Positions 1,559 through 12,486 of a DNA stretch of 20,346 bases are shown here, in pieces; positions within the stretch are counted from its first letter, which is position 1, and the number at the start of each line of letters is the position of its first letter. The notes beneath the pieces were generated by a model. The model was given only the letters and a program-made list of their open reading frames with translations, was not told the DNA's origin and did no database searches. The translations under genes and the position numbers were made by a program. Source of the DNA: Chrysochromulina tobinii (Eukaryota; Haptophyta; Prymnesiales; Chrysochromulinaceae); the NCBI GenBank assembly GCA_001275005.1, contig JWZX01001640.1, forward strand, positions 1 through 20,346, given 5' to 3'.

Positions 1559-2244
1559 GCTGTTGATCGTCCGACAACACGCGGAAAACCGTCCGCTCAA
1601 GAAACCTGCGAGAGACGAGAGAGCGCGCGCGAGAGAGATCCGAGGTTTGCATGCGTCACTGGCACCTGGAGAGGGTCAGGGACCATCGGGGTGGTGTGGC
1701 CATCCGCTTTTGCAGCGTCACGCAGGGCGCTTGCAGCGCAGGTGCTCCTGGCCCCGACGCTATGCTTGCGACGACCCCGAGGCGCCCGCCGCGCGCCTCA
1801 CCGCGCTCACGAAGGGTCGCGGCCCACCTGGAACTGAAAAGCTGCAAGCGAAGTGTCGAAGCGCTCCCCTGCAACGAACGGATGCGGGAGGTGACGCAGG
1901 GTTTCACAAGAATGGAGAACAGTTTTCCAACGGATCTCCTCAAAACCTCAACCGACGAGGGGACAAGTTCAATTGTGCCTCATCCTCTCCGTCGACTCTC
2001 ACCCCCACTGCTAGCCTCCATAGCACTGTCGTTGTACGTTGTTTATGTAGTAACTGAACTTGAACCTCTTGGACAAACGGACATAGATGGCACAGATGGG
2101 TCAACGTATTACATGTATTTGCTTTTCATGCACACTTGCCAGACACCTTCACTGAACTCGTGCTTGACTTGACTTGACTTGACTTGACTTGACTTGACAT
2201 GACTTGACTTGACTTGACTTGACTTCTCGAAACCTTCTCTTCGG
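1559..2244. other. Divergent intergenic region between Ca2+ ATPase and small plastid protein
   Basis: This spacer separates two head-to-head genes and so should carry both promoters. It has GA-rich sequence at about 1609-1645 (CT-rich on the ATPase coding strand), no clear TATA box, and a (GACTT) microsatellite at its right end. Open frames cross it on both strands, but none has a recognisable domain or convincing composition, so I call no gene here. Confidence 0.6.
2166..2225. repeat. (GACTT)12 microsatellite
   Basis: Twelve consecutive 5-nt units read directly. All are GACTT except one GACAT at 2196-2200. The tract ends 19 nt before the ATG of the 111-residue gene, so it probably lies in that gene's 5'UTR or core promoter, where copy-number change could affect expression (inference). 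Confidence 0.95.
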
Positions 2245-2580: not shown

Positions 2581-2780
2581 TCGAGAGCGGCACCGTAACA
2601 CTGCTGCTGTGCAACCATGATGCTGTGTAGGATAAAGACACTCTTTCAACTGACACTGCACTCCTGCCCTCACACAACTCACCCGGTGCAACGTTGTCCA
2701 CAAATGTGGAGCCAAAGAGACGCCGCTGGGGCGGCTGCGTTTGCCGCTCCGCGCCGCCCGGCTAACCGCGCCAAACCGCG

Positions 2781-2788
2781 TATATAAA
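2781..2788 (+). promoter_or_regulatory. TATA-box-like TATATAAA
   Basis: This exact TATATAAA is flanked by AACCGCG at 2764-2770, 2774-2780 and 2795-2801 and followed by CTACCG repeats. In a GC-rich genome it stands out as a possible core promoter. No protein gene starts within 1.5 kb downstream, so if functional it would drive a non-coding RNA or an unrecognised transcript. Equally it may be chance. Confidence 0.25.
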
Positions 2789-3030
2789 CGTCTTAACCGC
2801 GTACCGGGCTACCGGCTACCGCGCTCCGCGGCTTTCGGATCGGCTCTCGCGCCGCCGCCGCCGCCCTCGCGCGCAGCGTGATCCGTGAACACAGAACAGT
2901 GACTCCTGTTTCTTGTCCTGTTTATATCTATACCTCTAGATTCTGTATAATTCCATGTTCCCATGTCGCATGACGCCTTACTCCCACGCCGACCTCCCCT
3001 TCAAATTCCCCCACCGCAACTCAGGGGGTC

Positions 3031-3064
3031 CTGCCAATGTGTAGGTAGCTTAGTAAGTTACAAA
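3031..3064. repeat. Dispersed 34-35 bp motif, copy 1
   Basis: The 20-nt core CTGCCAATGTGTAGGTAGCT is identical to the copy at 11012-11031. After a short divergent spacer both copies continue with AGTTACAAA. The surrounding sequence is not similar, so the motif itself is what recurs. Confidence 0.8.
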
Positions 3065-4518
3065 GTTCTCTCTCTCTGTAAATTCTCTCTTTAATTCTCG
3101 GCTCTCGCTGGGCTGTCAATTGGACTGTCGATGTGAGTTGAGAGTTGCGCCCTTGCCGGTTGCGTCGCTCGCGTGTCGAGTCTCTCAGGCCTGCGGCGCG
3201 CCCAAAGCGGCGCCCGAGACGGCCCGACAACACACCAAGCAACACACACTGAAGCCCGCCAGCCGCCACCACTGCCATGAACACGTGAAACCCGGGAACC
3301 CGAAACCCGAAGAGGGCTAAATCTGCTGAACCCTGAGATGTCGGTCTGCGGTCAAGATCACGGCCGACTATATGTCCTTGAAACACCCGACAGGGTAACT
3401 CGCCTGACCTCGACCCGGCTGAGTGCGTGAAGCTGAAGCCTGAAGGCCCTGATTCTGCAAGTGGCAGCAAGGGCGTCCAACCAATCGCTCGCCGCGCAGT
3501 GCGCCTGCCAATGGCGCCTGCATGGGCGCCTGCGCGGTTAACAGTTAAGTTTAACAAACGTTTAAGTTAAAATGTGTAAAAAGCTAGTCTGCTTAAATAC
3601 TCGCTTACTCGGCCGTCGCCGTCACCCGGCCGCAGCGGCAGCGCGGTGACCCAGGCGTGTCCCCGCTCGTGTCGGCGCCGGGTGGGACTGCCGGGGGGTC
3701 TTGGATTGTCGGCGACGGGAGGGATTGCCGGGGGATCTTGGATCGCGTATGACCGTTCCAAAAAATGACAATCAATCATAATCAAACTAACCATCAGACA
3801 TGTGATATGGTAGCGTGATTTTGGCGCGGACACCCGTGACCCTGCGCCTGCCTGTACTATTGCCCAGCTGCTACGAGTAGCATCGGAAGAAACCCTCACA
3901 TGCAGCAGGGGATGGCGGAGTGAAAGCACGGGTACCTCGCCGTCATGATGGATCGTCAACGGATCCTCGGTGGTTGCTCTGGATGGTCGAGTATCTGAGT
4001 GGCAGGCTGCGCCGGTGCTGATGAACTCGCCGCAGCAGGTGGTGCAGAAGGCGACACGTGCTGAGCGCTCATGTTGTGATCGGCCGAGTCGAAGTATCGC
4101 TTCTCTTTGGCGCCGAGCAGGTTTGGCCTTTTCGGCAGTGCGCCTCCATACCTTGCTGCCAGCCTAGCACAGCACAGCAAGGCAAAGGGAGGCTGTTGTG
4201 AGCCATGGGAGCGTGAATTCACATATGCCGCGAGCGCGTTTGGCTGCCGGGCGTCGTGAGGAGCATGCGAATATGTGCGTGCGTACTTAGCCTCGGCCTC
4301 TTTTTCCGCCCCACTGACGTTTTCCTCCATTTGTCTGCAGCGTTGTGAAGAAACTGTGAAGAAACTCACCCAAGGCTCGGAGAGCGTAGAGTCCCACAAC
4401 AGTGCTCGGCGTTAAATTGCTCTCGAAGCAATCGGTTCCTGGAAGTTCCGAATCTCCCATCATGGAGGTCAAGAAATTCTGCCGATCTGCGACGCGACAC
4501 CCTCGAGCCGACGGCCTA

Positions 4519-8962: not shown

Positions 8963-9001
<39 letters not shown>

Positions 9002-9233
9002 TCTGCACACGATCGGCCGGTCATGTGTACCGTACTGTACGTGTACGGACCGAACGACGCGGAACCTCGGCGATCCTTTGAGCGGCAGTGAAAGGCGTAA
9101 CGACAACGACAACAAACGTGCTCCGCTAGGTCAGTCATAACAAAGCAACGTTTCGGGGCCCGAAACCAAACAGATCGAGCTCTGAAGACTCCCCTTTTGA
9201 CGACCTTGACACTCGTCCCGCCGGGGGTCAGGG
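8894..9233. other. UROD 3' flank
   Basis: No gene is seen. It contains the AC microsatellite and a CCGTAC...GTACGG inverted repeat near 9030-9048. CGACCTT at 9201-9207 is repeated at 10415-10421 on the far side of the mobile-like element. Confidence 0.5.
8966..8999. repeat. (AC)17 dinucleotide microsatellite
   Basis: Thirty-four bases of uninterrupted AC lie about 75 bp after the UROD stop codon, probably in its 3'UTR. Confidence 0.97.
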
Positions 9234-9281
9234 GGGGTTTGTTATCGAGTTTGGGGGGGTTTGTTATCAGGATACGTATCC
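9234..9281 (+). repeat. Left 48-bp terminal inverted repeat
   Basis: This repeat is the exact reverse complement of 10341-10388. It contains two direct copies of GGGGTTTGTTATC with a run of seven G between them, and ends in the palindrome GGATACGTATCC. Confidence 0.95.
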
Positions 9282-9760
9282 TGATGTATTGTGATGTATC
9301 CTGCGTGTATCCTGAAGGATACATGTATCCCTCGTGTATCCTGATGTATCTCAAATGTATCTTAAATGCCCTGTTACATTCCAGGGGAATACATGTATCT
9401 TGATATTTTGCATGTATTTTACACGTATCCCAAACGAGTCCAGGATACATTTTGGGATACACATCAGATACATCAAAATACATGTATCTTGGGCGCTTCC
9501 TTGGTACTTCCTTGGTGTCACACTGGATACATGTCAGGATACATGTATCTTGGATTCTTCATCACGATACATCAGGATACACCGGGATACAAAATTAAGA
9601 TACATGTATCTTGAACGCGTCATGACGACACTTCAGGATACAATCAGGATACATCACAATACATGTATCTCGGACGCTCCGTCCGAGCCGCGCTGGATAC
9701 ACACAAGATACGCTCGAGATACACAGCAGATACATCAAGGATACGTATCTTGGGCTTGTT
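9282..9760. repeat. Left palindrome array of the element
   Basis: GATACATGTATC-type palindromes lie at 9317-9330, 9389-9398, 9478-9487, 9538-9549, 9598-9611, 9659-9668 and 9740-9749 (the last with an ACGT centre). Four consecutive centres are 59-61 nt apart. Many half-sites (GATACA or TGTATC) fill the intervals. Confidence 0.9.
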
Positions 9761-10076
9761 CTATTTGCCCTGCTGTCCAAGGAGCTGAAGGCGCTCCGCA
9801 TCTTCGTCGCTCGAGTCGGGCTCCACTTGGGGCTCGCGTTGAAGGGCTGGCACCGGTGCCTTTCGATTGTTCCCCATGAGCCCCGCCTTCTTTCCGTCTG
9901 CTGGGCCGCTAGCTGTGTGCCCGAGGGTGGCATCAGGGTCAGTGGTTCTGGCATGGGCTGAAAGTATGTGAGTGCCAGGTTCTTCAAGTCAATGAGCTGG
10001 TCGAGCTGCACGGCAGCAGTCCTCGCCCTCTTCATCTCCTTTGCGCGCCCCTGTAGCTGTTGCAAGGTAGGCACAC
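9761..10076 (-). pseudogene. Exon-like gene fragment inside the element, with probable frameshift
   Basis: This is the only non-repetitive part of the element. On the minus strand it begins after TTCCTCCTCGCAG, which looks like a splice acceptor. The first part reads as an amphipathic helical segment (VPTLQQLQGRAKEMKRA, then LDQLIDLKNLALTYFQP). The frame one base back is open from a TGA near the middle to TAG at 9761 and reads as a plausible acidic C-terminus (for example PALQREPQVEPDSSDEDAE). The switch between frames suggests a one-base insertion or two-base deletion in a captured 3' exon. No family is recognised. It may instead be chance open sequence. Confidence 0.4.
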
Positions 10077-10090
10077 CTGCGAGGAGGAAC

Positions 10091-10340
10091 GCACGTAGGA
10101 TACATAAGAGATACATGTGGGATACATGCGGGATACATATGGGATACATGTATCTGCAGCGGTTCGAGGATACATGGAGGATACATGCGGGATACATGAG
10201 GAATACATGTATCTCAAATGTATCCGGAGAAGTACGTATCTCAGATGCAAGTTACATGCGGGATACATGCGGGATACATGTATCCTCAGAGGTCATCAAG
10301 ATACATGCGGGATACATGCACGATACATGCGCGATACATG
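10091..10340. repeat. Right palindrome array of the element
   Basis: Palindromes lie at 10143-10154, 10203-10212 and 10272-10285, 60-70 nt apart, with many GGATACATGCG-type half-sites between them. Half-site orientation is mostly opposite to the far left end of the element. Confidence 0.88.
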
Positions 10341-10388
10341 GGATACGTATCCTGATAACAAACCCCCCCAAACTCGATAACAAACCCC
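10341..10388 (-). repeat. Right 48-bp terminal inverted repeat
   Basis: This is the perfect inverted copy of 9234-9281. It starts with the palindrome GGATACGTATCC and carries a run of seven C. Confidence 0.95.
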
Positions 10389-10497
10389 ACGTCACCCGCT
10401 GTCCCCCGGTGTACCGACCTTACTTGTATGGCCACTTTGCGCTTCTTGGCTAAGCCAAAAAAATTTATGGAAGCGCGCCGCGGTCGGCAACACTCCG

Positions 10498-12301: not shown

Positions 12302-12408
12302 CCCGGAAGGGAAGGCATATCGCACCGGGAAGGCATATCGCACCGGGAAGGCATATCGCCGAGTAGGGAAGGCGTAACGCCAGCCGGTGATATGGCTTCC
12401 CTTCCGGG
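12302..12408. repeat. Inverted repeat enclosing 18-bp tandem repeats, beside the tRNA
   Basis: CCCGGAAGGGAAGGCATATC (12302-12321) pairs with 12389-12408 as a 20-bp inverted repeat with one mismatch. Between them GGGAAGGCATATCGCACC is repeated in tandem at 12309-12326 and 12327-12344, with a truncated third copy from 12345 and a diverged fourth at about 12366. The unit ends 5 bp from the tRNA 3' end and could be a small insertion into tRNA-flanking DNA. Confidence 0.85.
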
Positions 12409-12409
12409 C

Positions 12410-12413
12410 AAAA
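12410..12413 (-). terminator. RNA polymerase III T-run terminator of tRNA-Val
   Basis: TTTT on the minus strand directly follows the tRNA discriminator base, as expected for a polymerase III terminator. Confidence 0.7.
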
Positions 12414-12486
12414 TACCCATGATCGGAGTCGAACCGATGACCCCCGGCATGTAAAGCCGTTGCCTTAACCACTTGGCCACACAGGC
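12414..12486 (-). tRNA. tRNA-Val (anticodon UAC)
   Basis: On the minus strand 73 nt fold as a tRNA: acceptor GCCTGTG with CATGGGT, D-arm GCC/GGC with the AAGTGGTTAA loop, anticodon stem CGGC/GCCG with loop TTTACAT, and T-arm ATCGG-TTCGACT-CCGAT. The discriminator is A and no CCA is encoded, as expected for a nuclear gene. Internal promoter boxes are clear: A box TGGCCAAGTGG and B box GGTTCGACTCC. Weak points are three G-U pairs in the acceptor stem (including the first pair), an A-G apposition at the top of the anticodon stem, and only three D-stem pairs. It could be a slightly decayed copy or a tRNA-derived repeat. Confidence 0.88.

What the first reader, a model, noticed from the sequence alone, without database searches (positions are those of the whole stretch)
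9234..10388. A 1.15-kb element with perfect 48-bp inverted termini built almost entirely from GATACATGTATC palindromes
The two 48-bp ends are perfectly inverted over 1.1 kb, which implies recent insertion or active homogenisation. The interior is two palindrome arrays around one unique segment, with no transposase. This design does not match a standard MITE (usually short and AT-rich) or a simple satellite (no TIR). It may be an undescribed family of non-autonomous element, or a structural DNA module spread by transposition.
Basis: partly seen in the sequence, partly recalled or inferred. Interest (0 to 1): 0.78.

Follow-up and report, generated by a model that had tools for sequence, protein, structure and literature searches.

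The report
Gutted Mutator transposon with phased arrays
The repeat-filled element is a shortened, non-self-moving copy of a Mutator-type jumping gene from a probable haptophyte alga; its repeated palindromes belong to the whole transposon family and probably serve as docking sites for the protein that moves it.

Summary
The inverted ends are perfect over 48 bp and continue 9 bp further on each side: the element is 9225-10397 (1,173 bp). It is one of many in this 53-Mb draft: 41 + 59 terminus matches against 0 in reversed-pattern controls, and 169 GATACATGTATC sites against 1.

Its 'unique segment' is the start of a transposase exon, splice acceptor included, joined to that gene's last ~45 codons and stop. 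It is thus an internal-deletion derivative of a larger element.

A truncated larger relative (contig C997) carries the transposase gene, a divergent second gene, arrays and one terminus. The transposase is Mutator-like: Foldseek's only PDB matches at E<=0.001 are the IS256/Mutator transposase ISCth4, and 4 of 20 two-ended copies have an exact 10-bp target duplication. Pfam's MULE model matches only below its cut-off.

The arrays are GATACAT half-sites about one helical turn (11 bp) apart, under the ends and in a predicted intron of the transposase gene. I infer that they bind the element's own protein.

The window copy has no target duplication, so recombination or an assembly mis-join cannot be excluded.

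Verdict: new variant of a known kind (MULE).

The parts
9225..10397 (-). Whole element: internally deleted, non-autonomous Mutator-like element; the transposase remnant reads on the minus strand
   Evidence: Ends from the alignment of many termini; family; coding remnant
9225..9281 (+). Left terminal inverted repeat: GGGTCA tip, two copies of a G-run plus TTTGTTATC box, palindrome GGATACGTATCC
   Evidence: 57-nt arm, 95% complementary to the right arm, inner 48 perfect; 41 similar termini genome-wide, control 0
9282..9750 (.). Left subterminal array of GATACAT half-sites and GATACATGTATC palindromes, on the 3' side of the transposase stop codon
9761..9895 (-). C-terminal end of the transposase coding region with its stop codon (...DSSDEDAERLQLLGQQGK*)
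   Evidence: Frame shown; tblastn match of P0001, P0003, P0005 and P0024
9893..9900 (.). Approximate internal-deletion junction between the exon-2 start and the C-terminal piece
   Evidence: exact base not determined
9898..10076 (-). Start of transposase exon 2 (VPTLQQLQGRAKEMKRA...)
   Evidence: 97-98% identical to C997 over the shared part; P0019 match
10077..10089 (-). Predicted splice acceptor TTCCTCCTCGCAG in front of exon 2
   Evidence: Identical in L043 and L040, one nearby difference in L002; splicing not tested
10090..10340 (.). Right array; matches the predicted intron array of C997 (window 9893-10346 against C997:1329-1807, 91%)
10341..10397 (-). Right terminal inverted repeat (GGGTGACG tip)

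Best explanation
The element is a non-autonomous, internally deleted Mutator-like DNA transposon (MULE). A fuller but truncated relative (C997) has this order, read from its right end inward: right inverted terminus; array; a second gene pointing towards that end; a divergent transposase gene running the other way, made of a DNA-binding exon, a predicted intron filled with the array, and a catalytic exon. A left array and left terminus, seen only in deleted copies, presumably complete it. In the window copy, deletions removed the middle of the catalytic exon and everything from inside the intron to the right terminus. Shown by sequence: the deletion structure, the family, the termini, and 10-bp duplications in some copies. 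Inferred: movement in trans by a relative's transposase through cut-and-paste; the arrays are multiple binding sites for an element-encoded protein (best candidate the WRKY/GCM1-like exon-1 domain), set on one face of the helix by the 11-bp spacing; the array between the exons is a spliced intron.
Against: The window copy and 15 others of 20 lack a target duplication. PF10551 stays below its cut-off in the proteins scanned (20 against 27.6 bits at best) and the family search of the genome found nothing at E<=0.001. Foldseek TM-scores to ISCth4 are low (0.23-0.26 by query length). No intact autonomous copy was seen: C997 is cut by the contig end and interrupted in frame. Array binding, splicing and the fold of exon 1 rest on inference; the exon-1 model is poor (pLDDT 50) and its best PDB match has E 0.0085.
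Confidence: 0.85

Rival explanations
1. The family is mobile, but this particular copy is a hybrid: its two halves come from different insertions, joined by ectopic recombination in the cell or by the assembler. That would explain perfect ends without a target duplication.
For: No duplication at the window copy (3 of 10). 20 of 40 first-subtype termini run into a contig end within 120 bp on the inner side, 0 of 40 on the outer side, so the assembler struggles inside these elements. 5 of the 16 copies without a duplication have ends of different subtypes, 0 of the 4 with one (C308 left end, C1819 and C1178 judged by eye).
Against: The window copy has ends of the same subtype. C2166 has the same interior structure at 98% over the coding segment, so that structure is not a one-off join.
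Confidence: 0.3
2. The element is a transposon of another DDE superfamily with long repetitive ends, such as a Galileo/Foldback (P-type) or hAT element.
Confidence: 0.07
3. The array is mainly an intron-making module (Introner-like): array-rich copies insert into genes and are spliced out.
For: The same array forms a predicted 544-bp intron of the transposase gene, and Introners derived from DNA transposons are known from aquatic protists (passages of PMC9860276).
Against: No copy was shown to lie in a host intron; the one look at open frames across empty sites gave only short to middling frames, at most 220 codons for the four copies with enough flank. No transcript data.
Confidence: 0.06
4. 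It is a non-mobile satellite or structural DNA module.
For: Dense tandem repeats.
Against: Defined ends at about 100 terminus matches, flanks that differ from copy to copy, exact 10-bp duplications in 4 of 20 copies.
Confidence: 0.02

Closest known systems
Mutator-like elements (MULEs), including two-ORF elements such as maize MuDR (mudrA/mudrB)
   Same: Inverted ends, IS256/Mutator-type transposase fold, 10-bp duplications (8-11 bp reported), an additional ORF, internally deleted non-autonomous copies (features from passages of PMC6446971)
   Different: Arrays of phased half-sites under the ends and in a predicted transposase intron; the two genes are divergent here; Pfam MULE score below cut-off
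MULEs with tandem terminal inverted repeats (tomato, Arabidopsis; PMC3310237: abstract and two sections seen)
   Same: Extra copies of terminal, presumably transposase-recognised sequence; amplified non-autonomous elements
   Different: There the repeated unit is a whole TIR of 100 bp or more; here it is a 7-12-bp half-site or palindrome in long arrays
Galileo / Foldback-like elements (PMC3688188: abstract and outline seen)
   Same: Several binding sites for the transposase's DNA-binding domain in internally repetitive ends
   Different: P-element superfamily with a THAP domain; here IS256/Mutator-type catalytic fold and a WRKY/GCM1-like exon-1 domain
Rehavkus elements (one section of PMC6446971 seen)
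   Same: MULE-like transposon with a minisatellite next to a terminus
   Different: Described there as restricted to insect and annelid hosts, with a PHD finger and the minisatellite before the 3' TIR only; no PHD family appeared in the Pfam scans here
ISCth4 / IS256 family bacterial transposases
   Same: Best structural match of the catalytic protein
   Different: Bacterial insertion sequence; remote (10-17% identity)

Membership tests
Mutator-like elements (MULE) | Target site duplication of 8-11 bp | tested here: met
   Family level: exact 10 bp in 4 of 20 two-ended copies, null best 8 in 380. Not met by the window copy itself (3 of 10).
Mutator-like elements (MULE) | Terminal inverted repeats (14-500 bp reported) | tested here: met
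   57 nt at 95% in the window copy; many related termini
Mutator-like elements (MULE) | IS256/Mutator-type RNase H-like transposase fold | tested here: met
Mutator-like elements (MULE) | Pfam MULE domain (PF10551) over its curated cut-off | tested here: not met
   Best family but 20 against 27.6 bits in C997; 7 of 22 homologues match at E<=1; genome-wide family search found none. A cut-off of one library, not a biological feature.
Mutator-like elements (MULE) | DDE catalytic triad and C-x2-H motif | tested here: inconclusive
   Candidate residues by motif, of 15 aligned rows: H.DGK in 5, SDH in 8, E[SA][WY]H in 11, C[WY]PH in 8; rows are partial, and P0024 lacks the third motif. Not checked on the model's active site.
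Mutator-like elements (MULE) | SWIM zinc finger (common, not universal) | tested here: inconclusive
   SWIM-like C..CK...GICSHV in 9 of 15 rows; Pfam lists no SWIM family for any of 22 members at E<=1
MITE | Short (a few hundred bp), non-coding, derived from an autonomous element | tested here: inconclusive
   The window copy (1,173 bp, coding remnants) is too long; shorter relatives exist (C1178, 271 bp)
Galileo/Foldback (P superfamily) | P-type transposase with THAP domain | tested here: inconclusive
Introner | Copies spliced out of many host genes | not testable with these tools
   No transcripts or gene annotation at hand; only a predicted intron in the element's own gene

The most novel reading that the evidence does not exclude
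A two-gene MULE lineage of haptophytes and relatives in which the same helically phased palindrome array sits at three places, under both ends and inside the transposase gene's own intron, so that the docking sites for transposition double as an operator with which the transposase or the ORF2 protein throttles its own transcription or splicing; deleted copies that carry little but arrays would then act as decoys that titrate this repressor.
Probability: 0.25. Interest if true: 0.65.

Novelty: new variant of a known kind. Interest (0 to 1): 0.42.

Why it matters
This family is abundant enough to break the draft assembly repeatedly, and my paper searches found no description of it (open-licence library only). 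It offers a clean, testable case of phased multi-site docking in a DNA transposon, also inside a transposase intron, and shows how array-rich derivatives arise by internal deletion. Its second gene has 180 database matches, one of them from the named haptophyte Chrysochromulina tobinii, so complete copies may be found in a culturable alga.

Tried and rejected
Non-mobile satellite: rejected (defined ends, duplications). Undescribed class with an unrelated interior: rejected after the interior proved to be transposase pieces. An 8-bp duplication, considered from C1482 (7 of 8 at the ends): replaced by 10 bp once the ends were set at GGGT. A shifted, imperfect repeat at the window copy (CGTCCCGCCGG / CTGTCCCCCGG, 7 of 11) and one in C668 with extra bases: seen, not counted. 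Viral relatives: no exact match of a terminus pattern in viral contigs; BFVD gave two matches at E<=0.001, an uncharacterised bracoviriform protein and a Pandoravirus hAT-type protein, not pursued. Pfam on the C308 cargo frames and the C1597 frame: nothing over a cut-off. Exon-1 homologues: no Pfam family over a cut-off and no PDB match by profile at E<=5. Literature: no paper with GATACATGTATC; none with all of 'subterminal repeats', transposase, 'binding sites', Mutator and intron; none with Mutator-like, terminal inverted repeats, tandem repeats and Rehavkus; the titles and abstracts listed (2 of 2 papers; 10 of 11; 6 of 8) do not describe this family. only waited.

Full report
Setting. The window is contig C703 of a 53,154,812-base draft in 2,253 contigs. 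Every contig whose length I saw is at least 10 kb, which suggests a binned metagenome assembly (inference). The host is probably a haptophyte: among the 120 listed of 180 relatives of the element's second gene, the only one with an organism name is from Chrysochromulina tobinii (76% identity over 88% of the query; lineage). That is inference from one protein.

The observation. The perfect 48-bp inverted ends and the dense GATACATGTATC-type repeats are there and far above chance. The element is 9225-10397. The tip holds two copies of a G-run plus TTTGTTATC box, then the palindrome GGATACGTATCC.

Copy number. A 39-base terminus pattern with up to 3 mismatches matches 41 places (reversed control 0). 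A pattern for a second subtype (TTTCCTATC) matches 59 places (control 0). By eye the two lists share no place. GATACATGTATC occurs 169 times, against 1 for the pattern read backwards. These are probably lower bounds: for 20 of 40 first-subtype termini the contig ends within 120 bp on the inner side, and for 0 of 40 on the outer side (one of 41 left out on each side for want of a contig length). The assembler tends to break inside the element.

Target duplications. Among 20 copies with both ends in the fetched DNA, 4 (C308, C1556, C2117, C1819) have an exact 10-bp direct repeat at the ends; among 380 mismatched pairings of left and right flanks the best is 8 of 10, reached twice. The other 16, the window copy among them, have 0 to 6 matches. 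Boundaries were set by eye at GGGT or its variants. Copies with only one end in the fetched DNA were left out. C1819 was fetched after one search had shown both of its ends. An earlier, smaller count was 3 of 14.

What the interior is. The minus strand of 9761-9895 ends in ...KAPVPALQREPQVEPDSSDEDAERLQLLGQQGK*, matching the C terminus of metagenome proteins such as P0001 (...LLPALQRAPHVEPDSSDEEAERLELLGQQGK). The minus strand of 9898-10076 reads VPTLQQLQGRAKEMKRA..., the start of exon 2 of the same gene in contig C997 (97-98% identical over the shared part). The acceptor sequence TTCCTCCTCGCAG is kept, ending at 10077. The two pieces are fused at about 9893-9900. C2166 has a near-identical segment (98%); C514, C1127 and C2015 keep related pieces. 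Window 9893-10346 matches C997:1329-1807 at 91%; the array part of that match lies in the gene's predicted intron. So the window element lost the middle of exon 2 and, separately, everything from inside the intron to the right terminus.

The fuller relative. C997:1-3647 (locus L043) is cut by the contig start. It holds, on the minus strand, exon 1 (from 2507), a 544-bp predicted intron full of the array (6 + 24 heptamers), and exon 2, which is interrupted in frame. The intron is my prediction: a GT donor and an AG acceptor with compatible phase, other phase-compatible GTs nearby, no transcript. On the plus strand it holds a divergent second ORF of 227 aa (2629-3309), then an array and a terminus. 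Metagenome relatives read openly across the place where C997 is interrupted (e.g. P0004, P0019). Of 16 metagenome exon-1 homologues, 12 run on into array-like translation (a looser word count gave 13, against 1.7 for shuffles). Two exon-2 homologues, P0023 and P0025, begin in array translation and run into the exon. The array between the exons is therefore shared by relatives. The second ORF matches 4 places in this genome: C997 and C1597 have a terminus on the same contig nearby, C2210 has a terminus match about 360 bp away, and C540 has a palindrome about 270 bp away. I take it as the element's own gene.

How it probably works. A relative's transposase would recognise the doubled tip box and cut and paste the element, duplicating 10 bp; this is inferred from the superfamily. 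Over the loci examined, adjacent same-strand GATACAT half-sites lie 11 bp apart in 376 cases, 10 bp in 99 and 12 bp in 57, about one helical turn; palindromes lie most often 70-72, then 59-61 and 89 bp apart. Phased sites suggest a cooperative DNA-binding protein. The exon-1 domain is the best candidate: its low-confidence model (pLDDT 50 overall, about 70 in the core) has WRKY domains as its top three PDB matches, with Aft2 and GCM further down, but none reaches E 0.001, and neither Pfam nor a PDB profile search supports it. Galileo shows that such a design exists: its THAP domain binds several sites in repetitive ends (abstract of PMC3688188).

What stays open. Why do 16 of 20 two-ended copies lack target duplications? 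Five of them have ends of different subtypes, which points to recombination between copies or to assembly joins; the window copy has like ends and still none. No read data, strain comparison, transcript or binding data were available, and no intact autonomous copy was seen.

Verdict. It is most likely a MULE deletion derivative. The phased arrays under the ends and in the transposase intron are the unusual part.

Noticed in passing
L068 (C308) about 2890-4020: The 2,099-bp copy with an exact 10-bp duplication carries about 1.1 kb of non-array DNA with frames that match no Pfam family over a cut-off; possibly captured DNA, as in Pack-MULEs.
   Followed up: partly
L018 (C1597) 1-1200: The end of the second gene is preceded by unrelated-looking, low-complexity coding-like sequence (398-aa open frame), so cargo seems to vary between copies.
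   Followed up: partly
L043 (C997) 1180-1370: Exon 2 holds tandem copies of a SGTQLAAQQT-type unit (about 60 bp) that the window copy has only once.
   Followed up: no
window 12309-12486: A perfect 18-bp tandem repeat (2.8 copies) lies about 55 bp from a tRNA gene at 12414-12486, minus strand.
   Followed up: no
window 2163-2225 and 8966-8999: A CTTGA pentamer array (12.6 copies) and an AC dinucleotide run (17 copies), the latter between the UROD-like frame and the element.
   Followed up: no
P0101 (Chrysochromulina tobinii): The named haptophyte homologue of the second gene ends in CILMYLDVS, which looks like array translation; the same architecture may exist in that genome.
   Followed up: no
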